From Devosia sp. A16 (GTDB lineage Bacteria > Pseudomonadota > Alphaproteobacteria > Rhizobiales > Devosiaceae), in assembly GCF_001402915.1 (NCBI RefSeq), contig NZ_CP012945.1, positions 3,635,501-3,699,500 of the forward strand: DNA of 64,000 nucleotides, read 5' to 3'. The first letter of the stretch is position 1, and each line of letters opens with the position of its first letter. The notes under the pieces were generated by a model. The model had not been told where the DNA came from, ran no database searches, and worked only from the letters and a program-made list of their open reading frames with translations. Positions 18,488 through 34,433 of the stretch are shown here, in pieces. The position numbers were made by a program, and so were the translations under genes.

Positions 18488-18716
18488 CGTTAGTCTCCCT
18501 GTTAAGGTATCCGCCGGGGCTTGTCCCCCGCCCGGCCGTTAGGCAAACTTCCATGCCCGAGGGCACACCAGACCATTCATTCCGCGCCGGATTGCAAAAG
18601 AAAAGCCCAAAAATGCGCCATTCAGCGAAGTGCCGCTGGAATAGGCAATGCGGTGCAGAATGGGGCTTACATTCGCGCTCGTTTGCGCTTAGCTGAGCAT
18701 ACACATCGGGGGTCCT
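18488..18716. promoter_or_regulatory. Divergent promoter region between the two catabolic arms
   Basis: This 229-nt gap is the only space between the minus arm (12155-18487) and the plus arm (18717-32193), so both must be expressed from it. It contains an imperfect palindrome with arms ATTCAGCG and CGCTGGAAT at 18620-18642 that could be an operator. A GTTAAGG-like sequence lies ahead of the binding-protein gene. No regulator gene lies within the cluster. I cannot place -35/-10 boxes reliably. Confidence 0.45.
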
Positions 18717-19106: not shown

Positions 19107-19120
19107 CTGAAAGGCCTCGA

Positions 19121-19915
19121 ATGAGCTATCGCAAGATCTGGTGGAACGACTTTTCCGCCTTCGACTTTCATGACATCGACCCGATGAAGACCATCGCGGT
19201 GTTTCCGACCGCCGCGGTCGAACAGCACGGCCCGCATCTGCCGGTGGGGACCGACACCATCATCAACCAGGGCCACCTCGATCTTCTGGTCCAGCGTGTG
19301 CCGGCCGACCTCGATATCCGCATCCTGCCGGTACAGGCGATCGGCAAGTCCAACGAGCATATCTGGCAGACCGGCACGCTCAGCCACACCGCCACCAACC
19401 TGATCGACGCCTGGACCCAGATCGGCCTCGAGATCGCCCGCGCCGGCATCAGGAAAGTGGTGTTCGTCAACTCGCATGGCGGCAATGTCTCGATACTTGA
19501 CATCGTGGCGCGCGAACTCCGGGTGCGCGCCGACATGCTGGCGGTCAAGACCGGCTGGAGCCAGTACTGGCCCAAGGACATCTATTCCGACATCGAGAAC
19601 CGCCATGGCATCCATGGCGGCGACAGCGAGACCTCGGTGGTCATGCATTTGCGGCCCGAACTGGTGAACCGCGACAAGTTGCAGGCCTACCCGTCGGTCG
19701 CGGCCCGCGACGAGCAGGCCTACAAGTACATGCGGCCCACCGGCGCGACGAGCTACGCCTGGATCGCCAGCGACATCCACCCGCTCGGCGCTGCGGGTGA
19801 GGCGCATCTGGCGACCGCGGATAAGGGACGGATCACCGTGGAAACGGCGGTCGGCAGCTTCATCGAGCTGCTGCGCGAGGTCGAGCGCTATCCGCTGCCG
19901 GGAGAGCGGAGGTAG
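19121..19915 (+). CDS. Creatininase family amidohydrolase
   Basis: Metal-dependent hydrolase of the creatinine amidohydrolase fold, opening cyclic amides such as creatinine or related lactams and formamides; 264 residues. The metal ligands sit at the same numbering as in creatininase: Glu34 and His36 in AVEQHGPHLP, Asp45 in VGTD, then His in VNSHGGN and Glu in GGDSET. It lies between the RidA-like gene and the ergothionase-like gene, so it may act on a heterocyclic intermediate or on a second substrate taken up by the minus-arm importer. Actual substrate unknown. Confidence 0.88.
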   Translation: MSYRKIWWNDFSAFDFHDIDPMKTIAVFPTAAVEQHGPHLPVGTDTIINQGHLDLLVQRVPADLDIRILPVQAIGKSNEHIWQTGTLSHTATNLIDAWTQIGLEIARAGIRKVVFVNSHGGNVSILDIVARELRVRADMLAVKTGWSQYWPKDIYSDIENRHGIHGGDSETSVVMHLRPELVNRDKLQAYPSVAARDEQAYKYMRPTGATSYAWIASDIHPLGAAGEAHLATADKGRITVETAVGSFIELLREVERYPLPGERR

Positions 19916-20151: not shown

Positions 20152-21705
20152 ATGCAGCAGTTTCACTCTCCTGACGGTACCCTCAGCCTCGACGGCAAAC
20201 CGATGAGCTTTGCCAGTCTGGCGCGGGTCGGGGCGCGCACCGTTTCGCTCGAGGCCGATGCCGCCGCCATGGCGCGGGTCGATCTCTCTCGCAAGGTGGT
20301 CGAGGACAAGATCGCCCGTGGCGAGGCGGTGTACGGCGCCAATACCGGCGTCGGCGCCATGAAGGATGTAGAGTGGTCGCCCGAGGACCTCGAGATGTTC
20401 AACCTCGGACTGGTGCGGGCGCACCATTTCGGCACCGGCGCGCCGTTCCCCAGTTCCGTGGTGCGTAGCGCCATGGCGATCCGCGTCAACACCGCGCTGA
20501 CCGGCCGGGTCGGCTGCTCGCGGGGCCTGGTCGAGGCCTACCTGGCGCTGCTCGACAGGGATGTCGTGCCGGTGGTGCGTCGCACCGGCTCGATCGGCAC
20601 CGCCGATATCGGGCTGATGGGCCAGATCGGCGCCGTGCTGACCGGGGTCGGCGAAGCCGTCTACCAAAACCGGCGCATGTCGGCGGAAGCGGCGCTGGCC
20701 GAGGCCGGCCTCAAGCCCTGCCGCATGGCGCCGCGCGACAGTCTCGCCTCCATCAGCGTCAACGCCGTCGGCTTTGCCGCGGCAGCCGAGGCCGTGCGCT
20801 CGGCCGCATCCGCGATGCGCATGCTGCTGGCCACAAGCCTCACCACCGCCGGTGCGCTCGGCGCCTCGCGCGACCCCTGGAAGGCCGTGGCGCATGTGGG
20901 GACCGAGCGCGAGGCCGAAATCGGCGCCTGGCTGTACCATAACGCCATGGGGTGGGACTGGCCGAACGCCACCCACGTGCAGGATCCGCTGTCGCTGCGC
21001 ATGATGGCGCAGGTGTTCGGGTCGGGCTTCGACACGCTGCTGGTCGCCGGCCGCACCGTGCTCGCCGCCACCGGCCGCACCGACGACAACCCGGTGGTGG
21101 TGGACGAACAGGTGCTGACTTCGGGCGGCTCGCTGCCGCTCGATGTCACAATCTACCTGCAGACCGCGCAGTTGGCACTGGCCCACGCGGCGCGCAATTC
21201 GTTCAACCGCTGTGTACTGCTGAGCAATGGGGCGCGGCGCGACCTGCCGATCAACCTGGTGCCGCGCGGCGCCATCGCCACCGGCTTCGGTCCGATCATC
21301 AAGTTGGCAGGCGAGCTGTTCGCGCGCGCCCTGTCGATGTCGGTACCGGTCTCCGCCCAGTCGCTGGTGGTGGCTGCGGGGCTCGAGGACGAGGTGTCGT
21401 TCCTGCCGCTGGTGGTCGAGCGCTTCGAACGCCAGGTGCGCGCGCTGAAGCGCCTCGCCGCGCTCGAGGGGCTGCTCTCGGCCCAGGCCATGGACATCCT
21501 CGGGGACCGTCCCAGCGGCGTCCCCGGGATGATCTACGACAAGGTGCGCAAGCACGCGGCCTTCTACCAGGTGGATCGTCCGCTTTCGGCAGAAGTCGAG
21601 ATCATCGAAAGCGATCTGGGCTCCGAACAGAGCATGGCGGAACTGATTTCCCACGCGCCCATTCCTCAACTGGACGAGTTTTTCGCGCTCGGGCCGGTCG
21701 CGTAG
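20152..21705 (+). CDS. Ergothionase-like ammonia-lyase homologue lacking the MIO triad
   Basis: Member of the histidine/phenylalanine ammonia-lyase family, 517 residues. It keeps the Tyr loop YGANTGVG (Tyr61), NPVV and the Glu in LEDEVSF. However, the triad that cyclises to the MIO cofactor, normally Ala-Ser-Gly near residue 142-144, reads Thr150-Ala151-Asp152 in GSIGTADIGLMG, and the QDPYSLR-PQV block is altered to QDPLSLRMMAQVFG. Ergothionase is a known MIO-free branch that removes trimethylamine from ergothioneine, whose leaving group needs no MIO. The downstream enzymes match that pathway. Other quaternary-ammonium histidine derivatives are possible substrates. Confidence 0.8.
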   Translation: MQQFHSPDGTLSLDGKPMSFASLARVGARTVSLEADAAAMARVDLSRKVVEDKIARGEAVYGANTGVGAMKDVEWSPEDLEMFNLGLVRAHHFGTGAPFPSSVVRSAMAIRVNTALTGRVGCSRGLVEAYLALLDRDVVPVVRRTGSIGTADIGLMGQIGAVLTGVGEAVYQNRRMSAEAALAEAGLKPCRMAPRDSLASISVNAVGFAAAAEAVRSAASAMRMLLATSLTTAGALGASRDPWKAVAHVGTEREAEIGAWLYHNAMGWDWPNATHVQDPLSLRMMAQVFGSGFDTLLVAGRTVLAATGRTDDNPVVVDEQVLTSGGSLPLDVTIYLQTAQLALAHAARNSFNRCVLLSNGARRDLPINLVPRGAIATGFGPIIKLAGELFARALSMSVPVSAQSLVVAAGLEDEVSFLPLVVERFERQVRALKRLAALEGLLSAQAMDILGDRPSGVPGMIYDKVRKHAAFYQVDRPLSAEVEIIESDLGSEQSMAELISHAPIPQLDEFFALGPVA

Positions 21706-21799
21706 CATGCCGGGGGTATGACTTTTGTTTGGCGCCCGTATAGGTTTGACGCCAATTCCGGCTGAGGGACTGCAAGGCCGGAACAATAAGGAGACCATC

Positions 21800-22708
21800 A
21801 TGCTTTCGAAGAAACTGCTCGGCGCCGTTGCGGCGCTGGCCTTCACGGTGACCGCCGCGAACGCCCAGGTCGTCGTGTCCTCGAAGATCGATACGGAAGG
21901 TGGCTTGCTCGGCAACATCATCAGCCAGGTGCTGCAGGCCAATGGTGTCGCCGTTACCGAGAAGATCCAGCTCGGCGGCACGCCCGTCGTGCGCCAGGCG
22001 ATCACTGCCGGCGAGATCGACATCTATCCCGAATATACAGGCAACGCCGCTTTCTTCTTCGAGAAGGCCGACGATCCGCTGTGGAACGACGCGACCAAGG
22101 CCTATGAGGAAGCCAAGAAGCTCGACTACGACGCCAACAAGATCGTCTGGCTGTCGCCTGCTCCGGCCAACAACACCTGGGCCGTCGCTGTCCGCAAGGA
22201 CGTGGCCGATGCCAACAAGCTGACCACCTTCAGCGAACTCGGCGCCTATATCGCAGGCGGCGGCAACATCAAGCTGGCCGCCTCGGCCGAGTTCGTCTCC
22301 TCGCCGGCGGCATTGCCCAAGTTCCAGGAAGTCTATGGCTTCACCCTGAAGCCGGACCAGCTGGTGACGCTCTCGGGCGGTGACACCGCGGCCACCATCG
22401 CCGCTGCTGCGCAGCAGACCAACGGCGTCAACGCCGCCATGGTCTACGGCACCGATGGCGGCATCGCCCCCTCTGGCCTCGTGGTCATGACGGACGACAA
22501 GGGCGTGCAGCCGGTCTACGAGCCGGCCCCGATCATCCGCGAGTCGGTGCTCAAGGCCAACCCGCAGATCGAGGAGCTGCTGAAGCCGGTGTTCGCCAAG
22601 CTCGACCTCACCACCTTGCAGACGCTCAACGGCCGCATCCAGGTCGGTGGCGAAGCGGCCAAGGACGTCGCCATCGACTGGCTGAAGCAGAACGGCTTCC
22701 TGAAATAA
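21800..22708 (+). CDS. Substrate-binding protein, OpuC/YehZ family (candidate ergothioneine binder)
   Basis: Periplasmic binding protein of 302 residues for a quaternary-ammonium compound. The signal peptide (LLGAVAALAFTVTAANA) ends near residue 22. The mature part begins VVVSSKIDTEGGLLGNII and has GEIDIYPEYTGNA (about residues 73-85), the family signature. A strong TAAGGAG ribosome site precedes the ATG at 21800. Next to it are two permeases and an ATPase in the YehZYXW arrangement. The position next to ergothionase suggests ergothioneine or a relative as ligand, as for EgtU, which belongs to the same family. Confidence 0.88.
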   Translation: MLSKKLLGAVAALAFTVTAANAQVVVSSKIDTEGGLLGNIISQVLQANGVAVTEKIQLGGTPVVRQAITAGEIDIYPEYTGNAAFFFEKADDPLWNDATKAYEEAKKLDYDANKIVWLSPAPANNTWAVAVRKDVADANKLTTFSELGAYIAGGGNIKLAASAEFVSSPAALPKFQEVYGFTLKPDQLVTLSGGDTAATIAAAAQQTNGVNAAMVYGTDGGIAPSGLVVMTDDKGVQPVYEPAPIIRESVLKANPQIEELLKPVFAKLDLTTLQTLNGRIQVGGEAAKDVAIDWLKQNGFLK

Positions 22709-22807
22709 GCCGCCCGGCGGTCGATGCATTTTGGGGGTGGGCAGGACGACTGCCCGCCCCTAGTGTTTTGTGCATGCTAGGGTTCTGCCACATGGTGCGG
22801 GGAAACC

Positions 22808-22939
22808 CCTCACCCGTCTCGGCCTTCGGCCGATCCACCCTCTCCCCGACGGGGAGAGGAACAGAGGCGGTCACCGCAGCTTCGGGATTCTTCTCCCCGT
22901 CGGGGAGAAGGTGGCGCGCAGCGCCGGATGAGGGGGGCA
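22808..22939. repeat. Palindromic repeat, family D (CCCCTCACCC...GGATGAGGGG type)
   Basis: Left end CCCCTCACCCGTCTCGGC and right end CCGGATGAGGGGGG form outer arms. Inner hairpins are CCTCTCCCCGACGGGGAGAGG and TTCTCCCCGTCGGGGAGAA. It fills the gap between the binding-protein gene and the first permease and is a common rhizobial repeat type. Confidence 0.8.
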
Positions 22940-22943
22940 GGCT

Positions 22944-24131
22944 GTGAGTTCGATGGCTGTTCCCGAACGCAGCACCTCATTTGCCGTCGACAAGCTCGGC
23001 GTGCTGATCGCCGCGCTTGCTGCCGTCGCTGCCTTTCTCCCCTTCGCGGCCTTCCGCGCCAACCGCATCGTGCTCGGTGAATCCAGAGGCCTATTCGCTG
23101 CACTCCCCGGTTGGGAAGCAGCGCTCCTCGCAGTGCTGCTGGCCGCGGGCATCGCCGTCGCCCTGTTCCGCACCCCGACGCTATGGCGCCTCGTCGCTAG
23201 CCTCGCAGTGCTGGCGCTGCTGTTCGTCGCTATCGGCCATGCCGGCACGTTCCTGACGCCACCGGGCGACAAGATCGCCCGTGTCTCGCCCGGCGCCGGC
23301 TTCTGGCTGCTGATCTTCACCTTCGCGCTGCTTGCCGCAGATGCCATCGCGCGGCTGAGGCTGAAACCGTGGACCCGTATCGGCGTTCTCGCTGCGGTGG
23401 CGGCGTTCTTTGCCGTGCTGCTCGGTTCGGGCACGCTCAACGACCTCTCCATCCTCCGCGAATATGCCAACCGCGGCGACACCTTCTGGCGCGAAGCCGA
23501 GACCCATCTGGCGCTGGCCTTGGGCTCGCTCGCCCTGGCGGTGGTGGCCGGCATCCCCATCGGGATCCTCTGCCAGCGCAGCGATGCCTGGCGTGCGCCG
23601 GTGCTGAACGTGCTGAACGCCATCCAGACCATCCCGTCGATCGCCCTGTTCGGCTTGCTGATCGCGCCGCTCGCCTGGGTGGCGGCCAATATCCCCGGCG
23701 CTTCGGCCGTCGGCATTTCCGGCATCGGGGCGGCGCCGGCGATGGTAGCGCTGTTCGCCTATTCGCTGCTGCCGGTTGTGGCCAATACGGTGGTCGGTCT
23801 CGATGGCGTACCGCCCGCGGCCAACGATGCGGCCAAGGGCATGGGCATGACCGATTGGCAGCGGCTGGTGACGGTCGAGTTTCCGCTGGCTTTTCCCGTG
23901 ATCCTCACCGGCATCCGCATCGTCCTCGTCCAGAATATCGGCCTCGCCACCATCGCTGCGCTGATCGGCGGGGGTGGTTTCGGCGTCTTCGTGTTCCAGG
24001 GCGTCGGGCAGACCGCGATGGACCTGGTGCTGCTCGGCGCCGTCCCGACGGTGGCGCTCGCCTTTGCGGCCGCGGTCGTGCTCGATGCCATCGTCGAAAT
24101 GGTCTCACCCAAGGATACGCGCCGTGATTGA
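22944..24131 (+). CDS. ABC permease, large subunit (YehY/OpuCB-like)
   Basis: Inner-membrane permease of 395 residues. The first about 190 residues hold five or so extra helices, as in YehY; the C-terminal half is the BPD_transp_1 domain, with SIALFGLLIAPLAWVAA and the EAA loop GLDGVPPAANDAAKGMGMTD (about residues 289-308). GTG at 22944 or ATG at 22953 may start it. It overlaps the ATPase gene by 8 nt. The four-gene order (binding protein, long permease, ATPase, short permease) matches E. coli yehZYXW. Confidence 0.88.
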   Translation: MSSMAVPERSTSFAVDKLGVLIAALAAVAAFLPFAAFRANRIVLGESRGLFAALPGWEAALLAVLLAAGIAVALFRTPTLWRLVASLAVLALLFVAIGHAGTFLTPPGDKIARVSPGAGFWLLIFTFALLAADAIARLRLKPWTRIGVLAAVAAFFAVLLGSGTLNDLSILREYANRGDTFWREAETHLALALGSLALAVVAGIPIGILCQRSDAWRAPVLNVLNAIQTIPSIALFGLLIAPLAWVAANIPGASAVGISGIGAAPAMVALFAYSLLPVVANTVVGLDGVPPAANDAAKGMGMTDWQRLVTVEFPLAFPVILTGIRIVLVQNIGLATIAALIGGGGFGVFVFQGVGQTAMDLVLLGAVPTVALAFAAAVVLDAIVEMVSPKDTRRD

Positions 24132-25062
24132 GATCGAAGCCCTCACCAAGGACTATCTCGAGCTGACCGTGGTGGACCACGTGAGCCTCACCGTCGCTGA
24201 CGGGGAGATCGCGGTGATCGTCGGCACCTCCGGCTCGGGCAAGACCACGTTGCTCAGGATGATCAACCGGCTGATCGAGCCTACCTCCGGCACGGTGAAG
24301 ATCGACGGGCAGGACACCCGGGCCGTTCCGGCCTTCGAGCTCCGTCGCGGCATCGGCTACGCCATCCAGGGGCACGGGCTGTTCCCGCACCGTACCGTGG
24401 GCCAGAACATCGCCACAGTGCCGACGCTGCTGGGCTGGGACAAGGGCAAGATCGCCGCGCGCGTCGATGAACTGCTCGAACTGTTCCAATTGCCGGCAGC
24501 GGAATTTCGCGACCGCATGCCGAGCGAGCTGTCGGGCGGCCAGCAGCAGCGCGTCGGCGTGGCGCGGGCGCTCGCGGCCGAGCCGAAACTGCTGCTGATG
24601 GACGAACCCTTCGGCGCGCTCGATCCGATCATTCGCGCCAAGGCGCAATCGGACCTGCTCGCCATCCAGAAGCGCTTCGGCACCACGATCGTCCTGGTGA
24701 CGCATGACATGGAGGAGGCCATCCACCTCGGCACCAAGATCGCCGTGATGGACAAGGGGAAGCTCCTGCAATTTGCGCCGCCCGACGAGATCATCGCCCG
24801 ACCGGCAACGCCCTTCGTCGCCGAATTGATCGGCACCGGCGAGCGGCCGTTCCGCTTGCTGTCCTTGGGCAAGGTGCGCGACCTGGTCGAGCCGGGTCCG
24901 GCGCAGGGCGAACCGATCTCCGCCGATGCCTCGCTGCGTGACGCCTATGCCGAGTGCCTGTGGACCGGCCGCGAGATGCTGCCGGTGGTCGATGCCGACG
25001 GCGCCAGCATCGGCCGCATCCGCCGCGACGACATCGCCCACAGGGCCGAGCGCCCGCAATGA
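24124..25062 (+). CDS. ABC ATP-binding protein (YehX/OpuCA-like)
   Basis: ATPase of the quaternary-amine importer, 312 residues from the GTG at 24124. Walker A is GTSGSGKTT, signature LSGGQQQRVGVARAL, Walker B LLLMDEPFGALDP, switch His VTHDMEEAIHL. The C terminus (about residues 245-310, with MLPVVDADGASIGRIRRDDI) looks like a single shortened CBS motif, the osmosensing module of OpuA-type ATPases. Start overlaps the large permease end and its stop overlaps the next ATG (ATGA), so the three are coupled. Confidence 0.92.
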   Translation: MIEIEALTKDYLELTVVDHVSLTVADGEIAVIVGTSGSGKTTLLRMINRLIEPTSGTVKIDGQDTRAVPAFELRRGIGYAIQGHGLFPHRTVGQNIATVPTLLGWDKGKIAARVDELLELFQLPAAEFRDRMPSELSGGQQQRVGVARALAAEPKLLLMDEPFGALDPIIRAKAQSDLLAIQKRFGTTIVLVTHDMEEAIHLGTKIAVMDKGKLLQFAPPDEIIARPATPFVAELIGTGERPFRLLSLGKVRDLVEPGPAQGEPISADASLRDAYAECLWTGREMLPVVDADGASIGRIRRDDIAHRAERPQ

Positions 25063-25805
25063 AGCCGGGGCTGATCATCCGGCTGCTGGTCCTCGCGCTG
25101 CTGGTGGCGTTCATCGTCACGCCCGAGAGCTTTACCTGGGTGTTCCAGCCGCTGACCAGGAACGGCCAGCCGGCCATCTACACCCAGAACTCGCTGCTCA
25201 ACCTGACGCTCAGCCACCTGACCATTGTCGCCATCGCGACCATCGCCTCGACACTGCTGGCGGTGGGCTTGGCCATCCTCGTCACCCGGCCGTTCGGCGC
25301 CGAGTTTTTGCCGCTGAGCCGCTCGCTCGCCAATATCGGCCAGACTTTTCCGCCCGTGGCGGTGCTGGCCCTGGCCGTACCGGTGCTCGGCTTCGGCACG
25401 GCGCCGACCCTGGTGGCGCTGTTCCTTTACGGGCTGCTGCCGATCTTCGAGAATGCGCTCACCGGCCTCACCACGCTGCCGCCGGCTGTAACCGAGGCGG
25501 CGCGCGGTGTCGGCATGACCGACCGGCAGCGGCTTCTGGACGTGGAACTGCCGCTGGCGACCCCGGTGATCCTCGCCGGCATCCGGCTCTCGGTGGTGAT
25601 CTCGGTGGCGACGGCCACCATCGGCTCGACCGTCGCCGCTTCGACGCTGGGCGAGGTGATCATCGCCGGGCTGCTCAGCAACAATATCGCCTTCATCGCC
25701 CAGGGCGGCCTGGTGGTCGGCGTGATGGCGGTCCTGATCTATGATGCGCTTTCGGCGCTCGAGCGGGCACTGATGCAAAGGACGGGACAGAGGAGGGCGA
25801 GGTGA
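25059..25805 (+). CDS. ABC permease, small subunit (YehW/OpuCD-like)
   Basis: Second inner-membrane permease of the importer, 248 residues with about six helices. BPD_transp_1 features include NIGQTFPPVAVLALAVPVLG and the EAA loop GLTTLPPAVTEAARGVGMTD (about residues 139-158). The ATG at 25059 overlaps the ATPase stop (ATGA). Having two different permeases matches the YehW/YehY pair. A family A repeat follows at 25831. Confidence 0.9.
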   Translation: MKPGLIIRLLVLALLVAFIVTPESFTWVFQPLTRNGQPAIYTQNSLLNLTLSHLTIVAIATIASTLLAVGLAILVTRPFGAEFLPLSRSLANIGQTFPPVAVLALAVPVLGFGTAPTLVALFLYGLLPIFENALTGLTTLPPAVTEAARGVGMTDRQRLLDVELPLATPVILAGIRLSVVISVATATIGSTVAASTLGEVIIAGLLSNNIAFIAQGGLVVGVMAVLIYDALSALERALMQRTGQRRAR

Positions 25806-25830
25806 TCACCAAGGTTCCAGCCTCCCCAGT

Positions 25831-25908
25831 GTCATCCCAGCGAAAGCTGGGACCCATTTCTCAGCCCGCGCCGGCGGAAGCTTGGATCCCAGCGTTCGCT
25901 GGGATGAC
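25831..25908. repeat. Interspersed palindromic repeat, family A
   Basis: Arms GTCATCCCAGCGAAAGCTGG and GCGTTCGCTGGGATGAC, about 40 nt apart, the same family as 6194-6277 with A/T in place of C/G at the stem base. Lies between the small permease and the hydantoinase genes. Confidence 0.85.
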
Positions 25909-25939
25909 ATCGAATTTCTGGATGTTGCAGAGGTAAGTT

Positions 25940-27283
25940 ATGTCCGATTTCGATCTCGTCCTCGCCGGCACGGTGGTGCTGCCATCCATGGTGATCGAGG
26001 ATGGCTATGTCGCGGTGCGCGACGGCAAGGTGGTGCATGTCGGGGAGGGGGCGCCGCCGCACGCGCATGACCGGCATCTGCTGGGCAAGGCGCTGATCCT
26101 GCCCGGCGCCATCGATGCGCAGACCCATTCACTGAGCCAGAAGAACCAGGAGGATTTCATCTGGTCGACCCGTTCGGCGGCGGCCGGCGGGGTCACCACC
26201 ATCGTCGACATGCCCTATGACGAAGGCAATCTCGTCTGCTCGGCCGAAGCGGTGCGGATCAAGGTGGCGCATGCCACCCCACAGGCCCGGGTGGATTTCG
26301 CGCTCTACGGTACCATCAACCCGGAGGAGGGGGCGAGCCGCATCGCCGAGCAGGCGGCGGCCGGCGTCGCGGCGTTCAAGTTCTCGACCTTCGGCACTGA
26401 CCCGGTGCGCTTTCCCCGCATCTCGCCGCCACTGCTCGCCGAGGCGTTCGCCGAGGTGGCGAAGACCGGGCTGACGGCCGGCGTCCATAACGAGGACGAC
26501 GAGAGCGTCCGCGCCGCCATGGCGCGGGTGAAGGCCTCAGGCATTACCGACTGGCGCGCCCATGGCATGAGCCGTCCGCCGCTGACCGAGCTCCTGGCGA
26601 CGCTGCAGATCTACGAGACCGGCGCCCAAACCGGGTGCGAGGCGCATGTGGTGCACTGCTCGCTGAGCCGTGGTTACGACATCGCCGCCGACTATCGGGC
26701 GCATGGTTTCGGCGCCACCATTGAGTGCTGCATTCACTACCTGACCCTCGATGAGGAGAACGATGTCCGCCGGCTCGGCGGCAAGGCCAAGATCAACCCG
26801 CCGATCCGCCCCCGCGCCGAGGTGGAAGCGCTGTGGCGGCAGGTCGCCGCCGGCAACGTGACGCTGGTTTCGACCGATCACGTCAGCTGGTCGGAGGATC
26901 GCAAGACCAACCCGGACATGCTGGCCAATTCCTCGGGCGTGCCGGGGCTCGAGGCGATGGTGCCGCTGTTCGTCAAGGGCGCGCTTGAGCGCGGCGTGTC
27001 GCTGACCTGGGCGGCGAGACTGATGGCAGCGAACCCCGCCAAGCACTTCCGGCTCGGCACCAAGGGTGCGCTGGAGGCCGGCAAGGATGCCGACATCACC
27101 GTGCTGGTGGATCGGCCAACGGTCTATGACGCGGCGCGATCGGGGCACAATGTGGTGGGGTGGTCGCCGTACAACGGCATCGAGTTGCCGTGGACGGTGG
27201 CCGGCACCTGGCTGCGCGGACAGCAGGTGTTCGATGGAACCAGCGTCGCCGAGCCCGGGGCGGGGCAGTGGGTGCGGCCGTGA
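25940..27283 (+). CDS. Hydantoinase/dihydropyrimidinase-family amidohydrolase
   Basis: Cyclic amide hydrolase of 447 residues. In the ergothioneine pathway this step opens hydantoin-5-propionate to N-carbamoyl-glutamate. It has the family frame: PGAIDAQTHS, AAGGVTTIVDMP, the candidate carboxylated Lys in AAFKFSTFG, His in VVHCSLSRG and the catalytic Asp in VSTDHVSW. The first His of the usual HxH pair is replaced by Gln61 (QTH, codon CAG at 26120-26122), which is unusual. A run of aliphatic residues and GKDADITVL closes the barrel. It follows the importer, and the N-carbamoyl hydrolase follows after the DUF559 cassette. Confidence 0.85.
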   Translation: MSDFDLVLAGTVVLPSMVIEDGYVAVRDGKVVHVGEGAPPHAHDRHLLGKALILPGAIDAQTHSLSQKNQEDFIWSTRSAAAGGVTTIVDMPYDEGNLVCSAEAVRIKVAHATPQARVDFALYGTINPEEGASRIAEQAAAGVAAFKFSTFGTDPVRFPRISPPLLAEAFAEVAKTGLTAGVHNEDDESVRAAMARVKASGITDWRAHGMSRPPLTELLATLQIYETGAQTGCEAHVVHCSLSRGYDIAADYRAHGFGATIECCIHYLTLDEENDVRRLGGKAKINPPIRPRAEVEALWRQVAAGNVTLVSTDHVSWSEDRKTNPDMLANSSGVPGLEAMVPLFVKGALERGVSLTWAARLMAANPAKHFRLGTKGALEAGKDADITVLVDRPTVYDAARSGHNVVGWSPYNGIELPWTVAGTWLRGQQVFDGTSVAEPGAGQWVRP

Positions 27284-27334
27284 GGACTGTGCAGAGATCG
27301 CCGACGTCTTTGGGACGATGATTGGTGAGCGCAG

Positions 27335-27376
27335 GTCTCCTCCCCCCTTGAGGGGGAGGGACAGGGTGGGGGGTGT
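27335..27376. repeat. Left 42-bp inverted repeat flanking the DUF559 gene
   Basis: This 42-nt segment is identical to the reverse complement of 27729-27770. It contains a CCCCCCTTGAGGGGG hairpin and the GGGACAGGGTGGGG core shared with family B palindromes. The flanking GGTGAGCG is also partly repeated outside the right copy. Confidence 0.9.
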
Positions 27377-27379
27377 CTC

Positions 27380-27832
27380 TTGCGCACGGAGCTCCGTCGG
27401 AAACTCAGACGAAATAGCTCGCCGCCTGAGCAGGCGATGTGGCGGATACTGTGGCACTTCCGCGAGCAGGGGGGGCATTTCCGGCGGCAGGTGCAGATCG
27501 ATCGTTACTACGTGGATTTTGCCTGCTTGGGCGCGAAGGTGATCATGGAGGTCGATGGTGATACGCACGGCACCGACGAGGCGATCGCCAAGGATGCGGA
27601 CCGCGATGAGTACCTGTCTTCGCACGGCTTAATCGTGCTGCGATACTCGAATGGCGACGTGATGAAGAACGCCGAGGGAGTATTTGAGCACTTGGCGGGA
27701 GTGCTTGGGGCAGTATCGAGTACAGCAAACACCCCCCACCCTGTCCCTCCCCCTCAAGGGGGGAGGAGACGCTCACCCGATACCGCGGATCAAGCGGAAG
27801 CCTCTGTAAATTCCCCGCGGAAAGCCCCATGA
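27380..27832 (+). CDS. DUF559 protein (Vsr-like endonuclease fold) in a repeat-bounded cassette
   Basis: A 150-residue DUF559 protein, predicted from the family to have a restriction-endonuclease-like fold related to the very-short-patch repair nuclease. Visible blocks are ELRRKLRRNSSPPEQAMW, QVQIDRYYVDFAC and VIMEVDGDTHG, the last with Asp and Glu residues expected at a nuclease centre. The TTG start at 27380 lies 4 nt past the left inverted repeat. The right repeat is translated as the PHPVPPPQGG tail. Its stop overlaps the start of the next gene (ATGA). It splits a catabolic operon and is not expected to share its function. Confidence 0.8.
   Translation: MRTELRRKLRRNSSPPEQAMWRILWHFREQGGHFRRQVQIDRYYVDFACLGAKVIMEVDGDTHGTDEAIAKDADRDEYLSSHGLIVLRYSNGDVMKNAEGVFEHLAGVLGAVSSTANTPHPVPPPQGGRRRSPDTADQAEASVNSPRKAP
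27729..27770. repeat. Right 42-bp inverted repeat flanking the DUF559 gene
   Basis: Exact reverse complement of 27335-27376 over 42 nt. It lies within the 3' end of the DUF559 reading frame. Together the two repeats enclose a 436-bp unit holding a single gene. Confidence 0.9.
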
Positions 27833-29070
27833 CCCGCAATCTCCCCACCCAGGAAGCCCGCATCGCCGAGGATATCGCCACCCTCGCCGAGATCACCGAA
27901 CCTGGCCGTCCCTATACCCGCCGCGCCTTCACCCCGATGTTCCTCCGGGGTCGCGAGTGGCTCATCCGGCGCTTCGAAGCCGCGGGGCTGGAGACCCGCA
28001 TCGACGCCTCCGGCAACCTGATCGGCCGGCGCCGCGGCCGTTCGGGCGGCAAGGCCATCATGCTCGGTTCGCACTCCGACACCGTGCCCGACGGTGGGCG
28101 TTTCGACGGCATCGCCGGCGTCTCCGCGGCGCTCGAAGTGGCGCGGGCGCTGCGCGACCAGGGCATCCAACTCGAGCACGACCTGGAGATCGTCGACTTC
28201 CTTGCCGAGGAGGTGTCGATCTTCGGCGTCTCCTGCGTCGGCAGCCGCGGTATGGCCGGGCTGCGACCGGAGGAATGGCTCGACCGCGAGGTCGACCGGT
28301 TCACGCTGCGCGAAGGCATAGCCGAGGTCGGCGGGAACCCGGGCAGACTCGAGAAGCGCGAGGATATCGCGGCCTTTCTCGAACTGCATATCGAGCAGGG
28401 GCCGGTGCTGGAGGATGGACATCTCGATATCGGCGTGGTGACGGCGATTGCCGGCATCACCCGCATCGAGCTGGTGGTTAACGGACGCGCCGACCATGCC
28501 GGCACCACCCCGATGGGCTCGCGGCAGGATGCGCTGACCACCGCGGCGCGGCTGGTGGTGGGGATCGAGGAACTGGGCACGTTGCTCAGCCGGGGCAAGT
28601 TCCATTTCGCCGCCACCGTGGGTGAGTTCTCGATCGAGCCGGGAGCGGCCAACGTCGTGCCATCGCGGGCGCGGCTGCTGATCGATGCGCGGGCGGAACG
28701 CCGCGAGGATATGGAGAAGTTCGTCGCCGAACTCACGGCGCTGGTCAATGCCACGGCCGCCGCGACCGGGGTGACGATAGAGCCGCCATTGACCATTTCC
28801 GATAATTTGCCAACGCCTGGCGATCCGTTCGTGCTTGATACGCTCGACGCGGCAGCCGTGGCCGTGGGCGCGCGCCATCGCCGCATGGCTTCGGGCGCGG
28901 GCCACGACACGGCCTGGATGGCGCGGGTGACGAGGGCGGCGATGATCTTCATCCCCTGCCTCGGCGGCCGCAGCCACACGCCGGAAGAATATGCCGAAAC
29001 GGCCGACGTGGCGCTGGGCGCCGCCGTTCTGCTGGAGGCGGTGAAGCGGTTGGACCGTGAGTTGAAGTAA
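27829..29070 (+). CDS. Zn-dependent N-carbamoyl-L-amino acid hydrolase (M20, HyuC/AllC-like)
   Basis: Metal-dependent amidase of 413 residues that releases CO2 and NH3 from an N-carbamoyl amino acid; in this pathway N-carbamoyl-L-glutamate gives glutamate. Two-metal ligands are visible: His82 in GSHSDT, Asp93 in GGRFDG, Glu127/Glu128 in LAEEVS, His in LELHIEQGP and His in RSHTPEE. The dimerisation insert holds VNGRADHAGTTPM. Its ATG overlaps the DUF559 stop (ATGA), so its translation is now coupled to that gene. Allantoate or beta-ureidopropionate hydrolase are the family alternatives. Confidence 0.9.
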   Translation: MTRNLPTQEARIAEDIATLAEITEPGRPYTRRAFTPMFLRGREWLIRRFEAAGLETRIDASGNLIGRRRGRSGGKAIMLGSHSDTVPDGGRFDGIAGVSAALEVARALRDQGIQLEHDLEIVDFLAEEVSIFGVSCVGSRGMAGLRPEEWLDREVDRFTLREGIAEVGGNPGRLEKREDIAAFLELHIEQGPVLEDGHLDIGVVTAIAGITRIELVVNGRADHAGTTPMGSRQDALTTAARLVVGIEELGTLLSRGKFHFAATVGEFSIEPGAANVVPSRARLLIDARAERREDMEKFVAELTALVNATAAATGVTIEPPLTISDNLPTPGDPFVLDTLDAAAVAVGARHRRMASGAGHDTAWMARVTRAAMIFIPCLGGRSHTPEEYAETADVALGAAVLLEAVKRLDRELK

Positions 29071-29198
29071 GGCCCCCTCACCCGGCCCTGCGGGCCGACC
29101 TCTCCCCCGAGGGAGAGGTGGTGGGGCGGCGAGATGGTGCCACAGGTTCACCTCTCCCTCGGGGGAGAGGTCGCTGCGAAGCAGCGGGTGAGGGGGCC
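29071..29198. repeat. Palindromic repeat, family E (GGCCCCCTCACCCGGCC type)
   Basis: Outer arms GGCCCCCTCACCC at 29071 and GGGTGAGGGGGCC ending 29198, inner hairpins CCTCTCCCCCGAGGGAGAGG and CACCTCTCCCTCGGGGGAGAGG. It fills the gap between the N-carbamoyl hydrolase and DUF917 genes and ends 15 nt before the DUF917 ribosome site. Confidence 0.85.
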
Positions 29199-29225
29199 TT
29201 CTTACGGCCCGATAGGAGTAGTACT

Positions 29226-30353
29226 TTGGGTCGCGTACTGACCGAGAAGGATGTGGAAGCCGCGGTGAAGGGCGGCTCCGTCTATGCCGCCGGCGGCGGC
29301 GGCTGGGCCGATCATGGCCGGATGCTTGGGCTTGCCGCGGTGAGCATCGGCAAACCCGAACTCGTCGACATCGAGGAACTGGACCCGCGCGATTGGGTAG
29401 CGACGGCCGCTGCCATCGGTGCCCCCGCTTCGACCACGCCGTGGGAGATGCGCGGCGTCGACTACGTCAAGGCGGTGAAGCTGCTCGAGAAGGCGCTGGG
29501 CGACAAGGTCCGCGGCTTGATGATCGGGCAGAACGGCAAGAGCTCGACGCTCAACGCCTGGCTGCCGAGCGCCATCCTCGGCACCAAGGTGGTCGATGCC
29601 GTGGGCGATATCCGCGCCCATCCGACTGGCGATATGGGCTCGATCGGCATGGCCGGCAGCCCCAGGAAGATGATCCAGACCGCGGTGGGCGGCAATCGCG
29701 CCGAGAACCGCTATATCGAGCTGGTGGTGAAAGGCGCCACGGCGAAGGTCTCGCCGATCCTCCGCACCGCCGCCGACATGTCCGGCGGCTTCATCGCCTC
29801 GTGCCGCAACCCGCTGCGCGCCAAATATGTACAGCGCAACGCGGCGCTCGGCGGCATCTCGCTGGCGCTGAGCCTGGGTGAGGCGATCATCGCGGCGGAG
29901 AAAAAGGGCGGCTCGGCGGTGATCGACGCCATCGTCAAGGCGACCGGCGGCAGCATCCTGGTCAAGGGCTCGGTGACGAAGAAGGACCTCGTCTACACCA
30001 AAGAGGCCTTCGATATCGGCCGCTTCGTGCTGGGCGAGGGCGACAAGGCCGTTACCATCCACACCATGAACGAATACATGGCCATCGACGACGCCGGCGG
30101 CAATCGGCTTGCCACCTTCCCCGATGTGATCGCCACGCTCGACGCCGCGGGCCAGCCGCTCAGCGCCGGCCAGCTGCGCGAAGGCATGTTCGTCTTCGTG
30201 CTGCACGTGCCCAAGAAGGTGATCCCGCTATCGTCGTCGGTAGTCGACCCGGCCGTCTACCCGCCGGTCGAAAAGGCCATGGGGATCGAGCTGGCCAAAT
30301 ACGCGCTTGAGGGTGTGAAACGGAAGAAGAAGGCGCGGAAGGGCTGGGGGTAA
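29226..30353 (+). CDS. DUF917 protein, thiohydantoin desulfurase candidate
   Basis: A 375-residue DUF917 (S-methyl thiohydantoin desulfurase domain) protein. In ergothioneine catabolism this enzyme type removes sulfur from the thiohydantoin intermediate, linking the lyase/hydratase half to the hydantoinase half. Family blocks seen are VYAAGGGGWADHGRMLGLA (about residues 19-37), DMGSIGMAG and FPDVIATLDAAGQPL. The start is TTG at 29226, supported by AGGAG at 29214-29218 with 7-nt spacing; no ATG fits the domain start. It sits between the N-carbamoyl hydrolase and the urocanase homologue. Its presence argues that the pathway substrate contains sulfur. Confidence 0.82.
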   Translation: MGRVLTEKDVEAAVKGGSVYAAGGGGWADHGRMLGLAAVSIGKPELVDIEELDPRDWVATAAAIGAPASTTPWEMRGVDYVKAVKLLEKALGDKVRGLMIGQNGKSSTLNAWLPSAILGTKVVDAVGDIRAHPTGDMGSIGMAGSPRKMIQTAVGGNRAENRYIELVVKGATAKVSPILRTAADMSGGFIASCRNPLRAKYVQRNAALGGISLALSLGEAIIAAEKKGGSAVIDAIVKATGGSILVKGSVTKKDLVYTKEAFDIGRFVLGEGDKAVTIHTMNEYMAIDDAGGNRLATFPDVIATLDAAGQPLSAGQLREGMFVFVLHVPKKVIPLSSSVVDPAVYPPVEKAMGIELAKYALEGVKRKKKARKGWG

Positions 30354-30370
30354 AAGCGGCAGGCTGAAGC

Positions 30371-30496
30371 AGACGGCCCCCTCCCGGCCTCCCCCATGAA
30401 GGGGGAGGTGAAGAGTCGAGGCTCGGTCTTCGATCGTGCCAGACACACCAGCAGGGCACCTCCCCCTTCATGGGGGAGGATGGGAGGGGGTCGTCT
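30371..30496. repeat. Palindromic repeat, family C
   Basis: Second copy of the repeat at 15522-15645. Both share a 40-nt exact left arm starting AGACGGCCCC, and their right arms differ by one base. It lies between the DUF917 and urocanase-like genes. Confidence 0.85.
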
Positions 30497-30525
30497 CGGC
30501 CGGCCGTGTGCGCTAGAAACACCGC

Positions 30526-32193
30526 ATGCCAAAACCCAATCCCCGCCACCCGAATTTCCCCATTCCCTCCGGTCCAACCCTGCGTGCCAAAGGCTGGCGG
30601 CAGGAGGCGCTGCTGCGGCTGCTCGAGAACGTGCTGGCCGTCGGCGAGGACCCCGAAAAACTGATCGTCTACGCCGCGCTCGGCAAGGCGGCGCGCAACT
30701 GGGCGGCGCATCGGCAGATCGTCGAAGCGCTGACCACCATGGACGAGGACCAGACGCTGGTCATCCAGTCCGGCAAGCCGATCGGGCTGTTCAAGACCCA
30801 TGCGGCGGCGCCGCTGGTAATCATGGCCAACTGCAACATCGTCGGGCAGTGGGCCAAGGCGGAGGTGTTCTATGAGCTCGAAAAGAAGGGCCTGATCGCC
30901 TGGGGCGGGCTCACCGCCGGGGCCTGGCAGTATATCGGCAGCCAGGGGGTGATCCAGGGCACCTACGAGATCTTCATGCGCATCGCCGAAAAGCGTTTCG
31001 GCGGCTCGCTCGCCGGGCGCTTCATACTTACCGCCGGGATGGGCGGTATGGGCGGGGCGCAACCGCTGGCCGGGCGGATGGCGGGGGCGGCGATCCTCGA
31101 CGTCGATGTCGACCCGGTGCGGGCGCAGAGGCGCAAGGAGATCGGCTACCTCCAGGAGATCGCGCCGGACCTCGACACGGCGCTCGACATGATCGCCGCC
31201 GCCGTGCGCGACAAGCGCGCGCTGTCGGTCGGGCTCGTTGCCAATGCCGCCGAGGTCTACCCGGAAATTCTGAGGCGCGGCATCATCCCCGATATCGTCA
31301 CCGACCAGACCAGCGCGCACGATCTTGTCTATGGCTATGTGCCCAAGGGCCTGAGCCTCGATGAGGTGAAGCGGCTGCGGGTCGACGGGCAGGGGCAACT
31401 GATGGCGGCGAGCCGCGCCTCGATCGCCGACCATGTGCGGGCCATGCTCGGGTTCCAGGCGGCCGGCGCGGAAGTGTTCGACAACGGCAACCTGATCCGC
31501 ACCCAGGCAAGAAAGGCCGGCGTCGAAAACGCCTTCGATATCCCCATCTTCACCGAGGCCTACCTGCGCCCGCTATTCGCCCGCGCCATCGGGCCGTTCC
31601 GTTGGATGGCGCTGTCGGGGGAGGCGTCGGACATCGCGCGGATCGACGACCTGGTGCTCGAGATGTTTCCCGACAACAGGATCGTCACCAACTGGATCCG
31701 GCTGGCCCGGCAATACGTGCCGTTCGAAGGCCTGCCGGCGCGCATCGCCTGGCTCGGGCATGGCGAACGCACCGCACTGGCCTTGGCAGTGAATGCCCTG
31801 GTGCGGAAGGACGAGCTCCAGGGCCCCGTGGCCTTCTCGCGCGATCACCTCGACGCCGGGGCGATGGCCCATCCCAACATCATGACCGAGAACATGCGGG
31901 ACGGCTCCGACGCCATCGCCGACTGGCCGCTGCTCGACGCGATGCTGCTCACCGCCTCGATGGCCGACCTGGTGGTGATCCATTCGGGCGGCGGCGGCTA
32001 TGCCGGCTACATGACCTCGGCGGGCGTCACGCTGGTGGCCGATGGCACGGAGGCGGGCGATGCACGACTGTCGCACGCGCTGACCAACGACACCTCCCTC
32101 GGCGTGATGCGCTATGCCGATGCGGGGTATGAGGAAGCGGTCGATGAGGCCGCGAACAAGGGGATTGGCTGGTTTGATCTGCGGGGACGCTGA
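30526..32193 (+). CDS. Urocanase-family hydratase (thiourocanate hydratase candidate)
   Basis: Homologue of urocanate hydratase HutU, 555 residues, the normal family length; the enzyme uses NAD+ as an electrophilic cofactor to add water to the imidazole acrylate. The NAD site GMGGMGGAQPLAG and FSRDHLDAGAMAHPN are conserved. But the block that reads HHGGGVGMGFSQHSG in urocanases is HSGGGGYAGYMTSAG here, as expected if the substrate is not urocanate. It is the last gene of the plus arm. No hutI or hutG lies nearby. Placed after ergothionase in the pathway, it would convert thiourocanate to the thiohydantoin. Confidence 0.85.
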   Translation: MPKPNPRHPNFPIPSGPTLRAKGWRQEALLRLLENVLAVGEDPEKLIVYAALGKAARNWAAHRQIVEALTTMDEDQTLVIQSGKPIGLFKTHAAAPLVIMANCNIVGQWAKAEVFYELEKKGLIAWGGLTAGAWQYIGSQGVIQGTYEIFMRIAEKRFGGSLAGRFILTAGMGGMGGAQPLAGRMAGAAILDVDVDPVRAQRRKEIGYLQEIAPDLDTALDMIAAAVRDKRALSVGLVANAAEVYPEILRRGIIPDIVTDQTSAHDLVYGYVPKGLSLDEVKRLRVDGQGQLMAASRASIADHVRAMLGFQAAGAEVFDNGNLIRTQARKAGVENAFDIPIFTEAYLRPLFARAIGPFRWMALSGEASDIARIDDLVLEMFPDNRIVTNWIRLARQYVPFEGLPARIAWLGHGERTALALAVNALVRKDELQGPVAFSRDHLDAGAMAHPNIMTENMRDGSDAIADWPLLDAMLLTASMADLVVIHSGGGGYAGYMTSAGVTLVADGTEAGDARLSHALTNDTSLGVMRYADAGYEEAVDEAANKGIGWFDLRGR

Positions 32194-32373: not shown

Positions 32374-34218
32374 CTAGTTCTTCGCTGCCCCGGTCTTGGC
32401 CGCCTTGGCCTCGTCGTACCACCACACGGTAGGGAAGCCGATCGAGAATTCCGGCAGCGTGTCGGGATGGCTGAAGCGGTCCCAGCGGGCGATGCGGGCT
32501 TTGCGCAGCGTATAGGTCGGCACCGCGTAGTGATGCGCCAGCAGCACGCGGTCGAGCGCGCGGGTGGCGGCAATCAGCGTGTTGCGGTTGCTGGCGAAGA
32601 CGATCTTGTCGATCAGCGCGTCGATCCCCTTGTCGGCGATGCCGGCATAGTTGCGGCTGTCATCCTGCGCGGCTGCTGCCGAGCCCCAGAAATCTCGCTG
32701 CTCGTTGCCCGGCGAAAGCGACTGCGGCCAGCCGGTATAGATCATGTCGTAATCGCGCTTGCGCACGCGTTCGATGTATTGCGGCGAGTCGACCGAGCGG
32801 ATCGTGGCATTGATGCCGAGCCGCTTGAGGTTGGTCTGGAATGCCGTGGCAATCGGCTCGATGGTCGGGCCGTTGAGCAGGATCTCGAAGCTCACCGGCT
32901 GGCCATTCGGATCGACCAGTTGGTTGCCGTTGAGGGTGTAGCCGGCCTTGGTCAGGATCTCGTTGGCGGTGCGCAGGCTGTTGCGCAGCTTTGCCGTGTC
33001 GCCGTTGACCGGGTTCTTGTACTCGGTGGTGAATACCGAGGCGGGAACCAGATCCTTGACCGAGTTGAGGATGTCGAGCTCTTCACCCTGCGGCAGGCCT
33101 GAAGAGGCGAACTCGGTGCCGTAGAAGTAGGAATTGATGCGGTCGTACTGGCCGAAGAAGCGGAGCTTGTCGAGTTCCTCGAAGTCGAAGGCATAGAGCA
33201 TCGCTTCGCGCAGCGCTTCGCTCTGGAACAGAGGTTTCCTGAGGTTCGGGACGAACCCCACCAGGATGCCCGAGCCGCGATAGGGGTTCTCGAACAGCTC
33301 CTTGACCACCTTGCCCTCGGTGACGGCCGGGAAGTTGTAGTCGTTCTGCCAGCGCAGCGCGAGGTTCTCGTCCCACCAGTCGAAGGCATCGCCTTTGAAC
33401 CCCTCGAACTCGGCGGTGGTGTCACGGAAATACTCGTACTTGATCTGCTGGAAATTGTTCTGGCCGATATTGAACGGCTCCTTCAGACCCCAGTAATTGG
33501 GGTCGCGCTCGAAGGTAATGGAACTGCCGGCCGAAAAGCTTGCGAGCTTGTAGGGGCCCGAGCCCATTGGCGGCTCGAGCGTCGAGCGGCCGATATCGCG
33601 CGGCTTGCCGTCGGGGCCGGTCCCTTCCCACCAGTGCTGCGGCAGGACGATCAGCTGCCCCATGATATGCGGCAGCTCGCGATTGCCGGTCTGGTCGAAG
33701 GTGAAGGTGACTTCCCCCGGCGCCGTGACTTCCGCCTTGGTGACGTTGGCGTAATAGTTGGCCTGGCTGGGGTTGAGTTCCATCACCTTGTTGAAGGTCC
33801 AGACCACATCCTCGGCCGTCACCGGCTGGCCGTCGGTCCATTTGGCGCGCGGGTTCATCCGGAAGGTGACCGAGGAGAAGTCGTCCGGGTAGCTGAACGC
33901 TTCGGCCAGGTCGCCATACTGCGTCGAGGTCTCGTCGAGCGATGGGGTGGTCAGGGTTTCGAACACCAGGCCGATGCCGCTCGCCACTTCACCCTGCGGC
34001 AGGATCGGATTGAAGGTGTCGAAGCCTCCCATGTCGCTGAGCCGCACCACGCCGCCGACCGGCGCATCGGGGTTCACGTAGTCGAATCTCTGAAAGCCCT
34101 CGGGATATTTCGGCTCGCCGATCAGTGATCCGCCGTGGTGCCAGACCTTGTCCTGAGCGGCTGTCGGGCTGAACGACAGCAGCGCGGCCAGGGCAAGGGC
34201 GACTAGTTTCATGCGCAT
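32374..34218 (-). CDS. yejA: Peptide ABC transporter substrate-binding protein (YejA-like)
   Basis: Periplasmic SBP_bac_5 oligopeptide-binding protein, 614 residues. The start at 34216-34218 is chosen because GGAGG lies 5 nt upstream and gives a signal peptide (LVALALAALLSFSPTAA). Two further in-frame ATGs (34230, 34212) are possible. Mature blocks FDTFNPI, WTFNKVMELNPSQANYYANV and YWGLKEPFNIGQNNFQ are typical of YejA, which with YejBEF imports peptides such as microcin C. Unlike in E. coli, yejA lies downstream of yejF, 215 nt away with a palindromic repeat between. Confidence 0.88.
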   Translation of the reverse strand: MRMKLVALALAALLSFSPTAAQDKVWHHGGSLIGEPKYPEGFQRFDYVNPDAPVGGVVRLSDMGGFDTFNPILPQGEVASGIGLVFETLTTPSLDETSTQYGDLAEAFSYPDDFSSVTFRMNPRAKWTDGQPVTAEDVVWTFNKVMELNPSQANYYANVTKAEVTAPGEVTFTFDQTGNRELPHIMGQLIVLPQHWWEGTGPDGKPRDIGRSTLEPPMGSGPYKLASFSAGSSITFERDPNYWGLKEPFNIGQNNFQQIKYEYFRDTTAEFEGFKGDAFDWWDENLALRWQNDYNFPAVTEGKVVKELFENPYRGSGILVGFVPNLRKPLFQSEALREAMLYAFDFEELDKLRFFGQYDRINSYFYGTEFASSGLPQGEELDILNSVKDLVPASVFTTEYKNPVNGDTAKLRNSLRTANEILTKAGYTLNGNQLVDPNGQPVSFEILLNGPTIEPIATAFQTNLKRLGINATIRSVDSPQYIERVRKRDYDMIYTGWPQSLSPGNEQRDFWGSAAAAQDDSRNYAGIADKGIDALIDKIVFASNRNTLIAATRALDRVLLAHHYAVPTYTLRKARIARWDRFSHPDTLPEFSIGFPTVWWYDEAKAAKTGAAKN

Positions 34219-34303
34219 GAGAGCCTCCATTCGGGGGAGAACGTGTTGTGGGAGGTTAGGGGGGAACGGGGGCGGTGGCGAGGCACTAGAGCCGGTGTGC
34301 TTT

Positions 34304-34409: not shown

Positions 34410-34433
34410 AGCTCGCTCCGGCTGTACGAATGT

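What the first reader, a model, noticed from the sequence alone, without database searches (positions are those of the whole stretch)
20152..32193. A complete ergothioneine catabolism locus with its own importer
Five enzymes lie in one strand-uniform block: HAL-family lyase without the MIO triad (20152), hydantoinase (25940), N-carbamoyl amino acid hydrolase (27829), DUF917 protein (29226) and urocanase homologue (30526), plus a YehZYXW-type quaternary-amine importer (21800-25805). They match, one for one, the five enzymes of the reconstituted bacterial pathway ergothioneine to glutamate + trimethylamine + H2S + CO2 + NH3. The importer belongs to the family that includes the EgtU-type ergothioneine transporters. 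S-methyl-ergothioneine is a real alternative; plain histidine breakdown is ruled out by the missing hutI/hutG and MIO triad.
Basis: partly seen in the sequence, partly recalled or inferred. Interest (0 to 1): 0.92.

Follow-up and report, generated by a model that had tools for sequence, protein, structure and literature searches.

The report
Bacterial operon that eats ergothioneine
A Devosia-like soil bacterium carries a gene block that very probably takes up the antioxidant ergothioneine and breaks it down to glutamate; the pathway is already known, but the first enzyme and the importer are of less familiar types.

Summary
The genes are there and the reading is essentially right. Four of five enzymes pass NCBIfam equivalog cut-offs of the ergothioneine (ert) pathway: ErtD 771/600, ErtE 581/520, thiohydantoin desulfurase 591/440, thiourocanate hydratase 1025/930. 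The S-methyl versions fail (279/450, 740/880), while a control Agrobacterium pair scores the other way round. No NCBIfam ergothionase model matched the lyase. It lacks a residue of the MIO triad and the HAL Tyr280, like the T. denticola ergothionase, but forms its own deep clade whose place is unresolved; its predicted fold does not decide. Of 80 loci with relatives, 67 hold all four other enzymes. The genome shows no HutH over cut-off, no second urocanase and no EgtD. The importer is OsmF/YehZ-type, only distantly like EgtU. Context favours ergothioneine, but OsmF proteins inside and outside such loci are intermixed in a tree, so its ligand is not settled. New member of a known kind. Side observation: 10 of 11 DUF559 genes in this genome sit between inverted REP-like repeats.

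The parts
20152..21705 (+). TMA-eliminating lyase, HAL fold family, MIO-less (called 'type B' here), no signal peptide seen by eye
   Evidence: Pfam Lyase_aromatic; best PDB sequence match 6s7j ergothionase 178.7 bits vs 158 HutH; loop deletion, Leu at Tyr280, Ser at Asn195; predicted fold equally close to HAL and ergothionase
21800..22708 (+). Substrate-binding protein of OsmF/YehZ-type ABC importer, with signal-peptide-like N-terminus
   Evidence: NCBIfam OsmF 504/400; best PDB matches are glycine-betaine-annotated binding proteins, EgtUC only about 100 bits
22944..24131 (+). ABC permease 1 of the importer
   Evidence: BPD_transp_1; synteny
24124..25062 (+). ABC ATPase of the importer (ProV-like)
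   Evidence: ABC_tran, proV 279 bits, under its cut-off of 327
25059..25805 (+). ABC permease 2 of the importer
   Evidence: BPD_transp_1
25940..27283 (+). ErtD, hydantoin-5-propionate amidohydrolase; first His of the HxH metal motif is Gln (IDAQTHS)
   Evidence: NF058538 771/600; Gln in 85 of 87 relatives examined
27829..29070 (+). ErtE, N-carbamoyl-L-glutamate amidohydrolase
   Evidence: NF058540 581/520; the general model NF009531 scores higher, 639/486
29226..30353 (+). Thiohydantoin desulfurase (DUF917 / S-Me-THD family)
   Evidence: NF058529 591/440, S-methyl model NF058532 279/450
30526..32193 (+). Thiourocanate hydratase (urocanase family)
   Evidence: NF058530 1025/930, S-methyl model 740/880, hutU also passes 683/375; best PDB sequence match 7ned 803 bits, next 621

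Best explanation
This is an ergothioneine utilisation operon. Inferred course: the OsmF-type ABC importer brings ergothioneine into the cell. The MIO-less lyase eliminates trimethylamine and gives thiourocanate. Thiourocanate hydratase gives the 2-thiohydantoin-5-propionate, and the DUF917 desulfurase replaces sulfur by oxygen (H2S leaves). ErtD opens hydantoin-5-propionate to N-carbamoyl-glutamate, and ErtE gives glutamate, CO2 and NH3. The last four steps rest on curated equivalog models, the first on family, active-site signature and context, and import on context alone. The order of steps is that of the published pathway (recalled) and was not tested here. The cell would gain glutamate and nitrogen, perhaps sulfur; no EgtD match was found, so it would be a scavenger and not a maker.
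For: NCBIfam equivalogs over cut-off for four enzymes, S-methyl models under cut-off, with an Agrobacterium pAt pair as reverse control (976/880 and 555/450 for S-methyl). Lyase: one residue missing in the MIO loop and Leu for HAL Tyr280, as in 37 of 37 non-HutH rows of the tree, T. denticola ergothionase among them; Ser for Asn195 as in T. denticola. Context in 67 of 80 loci; all 5 desulfurase genomes are among the 6 lyase genomes of 199. One urocanase-family gene, no HutH over cut-off, no EgtD match in the genome. Binding protein directly behind the lyase in 30 of 30 loci that have it at 55% or more, and divergently beside the cluster in Ochrobactrum. All 6 lyase genomes of 199 hold an OsmF protein, 37 of 199 overall (chance 2.9e-5, relatedness not corrected).
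Against: No activity is shown. The lyase clade has a very long stem and its place is unresolved (AU p 0.41 with HutH, 0.29 with the T. denticola enzyme alone, 0.40 with other MIO-less lyases). Its AlphaFold model (mean pLDDT 79, several loops under 50) is as close to HAL (TM 0.83-0.85) as to ergothionase (0.83-0.84), with HAL entries ranked first. MIO-less lyases of unknown role exist (10 rows 'U'), so the signature is not specific. Three of 80 loci hold the lyase with none of the other four enzymes nearby; two of those genomes have the hydratase elsewhere, the third (Shinella UYSO24) only broken pieces. G569 has lyase and importer but no desulfurase match in its genome of 120 contigs. OsmF proteins in and out of the cluster intermix.
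Confidence: 0.86

Rival explanations
1. S-methyl-ergothioneine is the substrate: lyase, S-methyl thiourocanate hydratase and S-methyl thiohydantoin desulfurase releasing methanethiol.
For: Same enzyme families; the lyase alone cannot tell the two apart (no ergothionase model matched it).
Against: Both diagnostic enzymes fail the S-methyl models and pass the unsubstituted ones; L117 shows that the models separate the two.
Confidence: 0.05
2. Ergothioneine is degraded, but the importer is a general betaine or choline importer recruited into the operon rather than an ergothioneine importer.
For: OsmF equivalog; OsmF binding proteins in 37 of 199 genomes, e.g. one 90% identical in G454, in an importer block without the catabolic genes nearby and with no lyase match in that genome; intermixed tree with at least 7 label changes; no OsmF binding protein in any of the fetched loci titled Rhizobium.
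Against: Position directly behind the lyase in 30 of 30 loci that have it at 55% or more; all 6 lyase genomes have an OsmF protein; the lyase shows no signal peptide, so its quaternary substrate must enter the cell. In the tree the cluster label is somewhat more clumped than by chance (20 of 500 shuffles as low).
Confidence: 0.35
3. Histidine or N-methylated histidine (hercynine) breakdown by a modified hut route.
For: HAL and urocanase families; hydratase also passes hutU (683/375); an exported-type MIO-less lyase sits beside a full hut operon in Paracoccus saliphilus, which may be a hercynine case.
Against: Lyase fails hutH (223/539) and lacks MIO; the desulfurase would have no substrate; ErtD and ErtE pass ergothioneine-pathway models.
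Confidence: 0.03

Closest known systems
Bacterial ergothioneine utilisation (ert) pathway as curated in NCBIfam (NF058529, NF058530, NF058538, NF058540)
   Same: Hydratase, desulfurase, ErtD and ErtE pass the curated cut-offs.
   Different: Has an OsmF importer inside the block; lyase of a type that no NCBIfam ergothionase model matched.
Ergothionase of Treponema denticola (PDB 6s7j, 6s7q)
   Same: HAL family, no MIO triad, Leu for Tyr280, Ser for Asn195.
   Different: Only about 28% identical; the window's type is a separate deep clade.
Burkholderia arboris and Paracoccus denitrificans plasmid clusters (L113, L120)
   Same: Same hydratase (70 and 78%) and desulfurase (68 and 71%) beside a MIO-less lyase.
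   Different: Their lyase is T. denticola-like (35% to 6s7j) and begins with a signal-peptide-like stretch (by eye), so it is probably periplasmic; the window's lyase shows none.
YehZYXW / OsmF ABC importers
   Same: Over the OsmF cut-off, same gene order SBP-permease-ATPase-permease as stand-alone blocks.
   Different: Embedded in a catabolic operon.
S-methyl type cluster on Agrobacterium pAt (L117)
   Same: Same hydratase, desulfurase and hydrolase families.
   Different: S-methyl models pass there and fail here; it has a molybdopterin reductase and a GST and no lyase hit in the fetched 17 kb.

Membership tests
Thiourocanate hydratase (NF058530) | score over curated cut-off 930 | tested here: met
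   1025.5 bits; one match in the genome
Thiohydantoin desulfurase (NF058529) | score over curated cut-off 440 | tested here: met
   590.7 bits; two further weak DUF917 matches in the genome, 115 and 86 bits
ErtD (NF058538) | score over curated cut-off 600 | tested here: met
   771.4 bits
ErtE (NF058540) | score over curated cut-off 520 | tested here: met
   581 bits, although a general model NF009531 scores higher, 639/486
S-methyl-ergothioneine pathway (NF058531, NF058532) | hydratase and desulfurase over S-methyl cut-offs | tested here: not met
   740/880 and 279/450; control L117 meets both
Histidine ammonia-lyase HutH | hutH cut-off and Ala-Ser-Gly MIO triad | tested here: not met
   223/539; triad lacks a residue
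Ergothionase | HAL family without MIO, with the substituted HAL Tyr280 site | tested here: met
   shared with MIO-less lyases of unknown role, so not specific
Ergothionase | clade with a characterised ergothionase, to the exclusion of HutH | tested here: inconclusive
   SH-aLRT 89; AU does not reject alternatives
Ergothionase | predicted fold nearer to 6s7j than to HAL | tested here: inconclusive
   TM 0.83-0.84 to 6s7j, 0.83-0.85 to P. putida HAL; several loops low in confidence
Ergothionase | TMA and thiourocanate formed from ergothioneine | not testable with these tools
   needs the enzyme
EgtU-type ergothioneine importer | close sequence kinship to EgtUC | tested here: not met
   about 100 bits against 488 for the closest PDB binding protein; OsmF equivalog met
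EgtU-type ergothioneine importer | binds ergothioneine | not testable with these tools
   needs a binding assay

The most novel reading that the evidence does not exclude
The YehZYXW/OsmF importers, annotated as glycine betaine systems, include ergothioneine importers: 27 of 80 fetched loci hold, beside the lyase, an OsmF binding protein together with further ergothioneine enzymes, the binding protein directly behind the lyase. Since cluster and stand-alone OsmF proteins do not separate in a tree, many stand-alone ones may take up ergothioneine too. With a cytoplasmic lyase this would be a second architecture beside a periplasmic lyase (Burkholderia, Paracoccus) with uptake of thiourocanate.
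Probability: 0.25. Interest if true: 0.6.

Novelty: new member of a known kind. Interest (0 to 1): 0.38.

Why it matters
Ergothioneine is a widespread antioxidant from fungi and actinobacteria (recalled; also in an abstract listed), and its breakdown yields trimethylamine and H2S. The 80 loci kept (64-97% identical lyases, mostly Devosia and Rhizobium; 218 stretches encode some relative at E <= 1e-3) suggest that many soil and root bacteria can use it. The locus points to a lyase type for which no NCBIfam ergothionase model matched, and it gives a concrete candidate ligand for OsmF-type importers.

Tried and rejected
Creatininase at 19121 and the divergent ABC/deaminase/oxidase block upstream as parts of the system: rejected, because the creatininase accompanies the cluster in only 6 of 80 loci, all titled Devosia. 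An importer clade of its own: rejected by the intermixed tree. Nearer placing of the lyase by AU tests: no decision. More Burkholderia-type lyases in 398 genomes of the phylum: 8 genomes matched at E <= 1e-50, at 31-39% identity, and their ten fetched lyases fell into another clade. TMA use: the only marker tried, PF11927, gave no match, so the fate of TMA is open. Sigma-70 promoter scan: 0 sites, 1.6 expected. Lyase structure: modelled and compared with the PDB by Foldseek, which confirms the HAL fold but does not separate HAL from ergothionase; the second aligner was not on the machine. Literature: key papers are not held. Search for ergothioneine plus Devosia: 0 papers.

Full report
Observation. 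The block is as described. Pfam and NCBIfam scans name the families. Frames overlap from the first permease to the second. The other gaps are about 94-235 bp, except 545 bp between ErtD and ErtE, where a DUF559 gene lies. Five of these six gaps hold inverted repeat pairs, most of them REP-like; the gap between lyase and binding protein shows none among the 25 longest of 52 pairs listed. The starts of the binding protein (ATG 21800), ATPase (GTG 24124) and desulfurase (TTG 29226) are my choice from the frames.

Organism. The lyase finds 96-97% identical proteins in Devosia genomes (L002-L004), so the window is from Devosia or a close relative; the genome held is one contig of 5.03 Mb.

Which pathway. 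Four enzymes pass NCBIfam equivalogs of the ergothioneine pathway and the two diagnostic ones fail the S-methyl models. As control I scanned ten hydratase and desulfurase proteins from six plasmid clusters. Those of L113 and L115 (desulfurase only), L114 and L118 give the unsubstituted type, the Agrobacterium pAt pair (L117) the S-methyl type, and the Deinococcus pair (L116) reaches no cut-off of either type. Model names are curated annotation, not assays in this organism.

Not histidine breakdown. The hutH model finds only the window lyase, at 223 of 539 bits. The thiourocanate model, which also rings in 5 of 14 control genomes (over cut-off in 0), finds one place in the genome. PF10017 (EgtD family) finds none.

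The lyase. The best PDB sequence match is the T. denticola ergothionase, 178.7 bits, with HutH at 158. In a tree of 43 HAL-family rows, a selection from 115 long lyases plus the two yardsticks, the 19 rows of the window's type form one clade (SH-aLRT 100) on a stem of 2.8 changes per column, sister with weak support (89) to the T. denticola enzyme, the Burkholderia-type lyases and one Polaromonas lyase. treekit warned of long branches. AU tests reject none of the three other joins tried. All 37 non-HutH rows lack one residue of the MIO triad and have Leu at HAL Tyr280. Ser at Asn195 is shared by T. denticola, the five Burkholderia-type rows, the Polaromonas and Deinococcus rows and 18 of 19 window-type rows. 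Ser at Phe329 is found only in the window type, 19 of 19 (HAL numbering from the 1gkj chain). NCBIfam returned no ergothionase model for any of seven MIO-less lyases scanned. An AlphaFold model (mean pLDDT 79, pTM 0.84) has the HAL fold; Foldseek ranks P. putida HAL entries 1-3 and ergothionase 4th, with TM scores alike, so the fold does not decide.

Context. Of 80 loci from genome contigs (the best 80 of 218), 67 hold lyase, ErtD, ErtE, desulfurase and hydratase; 13 do not. Four are cut by contig ends close to the lyase (L002, L004, L023, L064), three lack only the hydratase within the stretch held (L020, L029, L031), and the rest are L014, L015, L057, L065, L069 and L078. All fetched loci titled Devosia, and those of Salinarimonas and Martelella, carry an OsmF binding protein behind the lyase (L028 at only 54.8%); Pelagibacterium and all fetched loci titled Rhizobium do not. 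In Ochrobactrum the OsmF genes lie divergently beside the cluster.

Two architectures. In B. arboris and P. denitrificans the lyase beside the hydratase is of the T. denticola-like type and begins with a signal-peptide-like stretch (judged by eye, no predictor run). Clusters with no lyase in the fetched stretch occur in Paracoccus aminophilus and Thalassospira, which have TRAP transporters nearby, and in Neorhizobium, with an amino-acid ABC importer; the rest of those genomes was not searched. I read this, as inference, as uptake of thiourocanate in those, against uptake of ergothioneine here.

Importer. OsmF equivalog 504/400. In 199 Hyphomicrobiales genomes the OsmF binding protein (E <= 1e-60) occurs in 37, the lyase (E <= 1e-100) in 6, and all 6 have an OsmF protein, linked (G000, G412, G545, G569) or not (G043, G107). 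In a tree of 44 OsmF proteins (34 from loci with the lyase, 10 not) the label changes at least 7 times, 3 forced by starred branches; shuffled labels need 9.3 on average and 20 of 500 need as few. So context favours ergothioneine, but I found no ergothioneine-specific clade; binding-pocket residues were not compared with EgtUC.

ErtD signature. The first His of the HxH metal motif is Gln in 85 of 87 ErtD relatives (2 did not match the search pattern). It is Gln also in the more distant ErtD of L113 and L115 and in the S-methyl cluster L117, while the dihydropyrimidinase beside one of them (L115) keeps HxH.

DUF559 aside. Ten of 11 DUF559 genes of the genome lie between matching inverted repeats (scores 18-47; the eleventh, L177, scores 10; 40 random window places reach at most 13). 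With flanks that may begin inside the gene, 1 of 54 other window genes also scores in that range (32374-34437, score 24), the rest at most 14. Measured from the ORF ends alone, as, the window's own DUF559 gene does not stand out, because its right repeat lies inside the ORF.

Papers. PMC13405746 was read in passages only: it says that ergothionase is definitively known from few bacteria and that divergent homologues are not covered by its search. Other papers were seen as search listings only. The pathway order and the published S-methyl work are recalled.

Noticed in passing
window 27335-27832: A DUF559 gene between ErtD and ErtE sits between two perfect 42-nt inverted REP-like repeats. In the genome 10 of 11 DUF559 genes are so bracketed (score 18-47) against at most 13 at 40 random places and 1 of 54 other window genes; 4 of 4 in related loci too (scores 21-33). 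At the same spot L003, L004, L006, L007 and L008 have an inverted repeat pair without the gene. DUF559 may be a REP-borne or REP-mobilising nuclease. Two paper searches listed nothing linking them (one search showed 12 of 26 papers; one search showed 2 of 2).
   Followed up: partly
   Followed up: partly
L173:2741-8599: Paracoccus saliphilus plasmid has an exported-type MIO-less lyase directly behind a full hut operon and near a TRAP transporter: possible hercynine lyase.
   Followed up: no
L057, L065, L078 at about 9970-11570: Lyase without the other four enzymes in the fetched stretch; in L057 it follows mutM-, ubiE- and ubiB-like frames (named by eye). The hydratase is elsewhere in the genome (L057, L065) or only in broken pieces (L078).
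   Followed up: partly
L153 (G569): Lyase plus OsmF importer with no desulfurase match in the genome: would release thiourocanate if the assembly is complete.
   Followed up: no
window 12754-19915: Divergent block: FAD oxidase-like, cytosine-deaminase-like (553/403), NMT1-type ABC importer, and a creatininase-family gene just ahead of the lyase. Found beside the cluster only in a few loci titled Devosia.
   Followed up: partly
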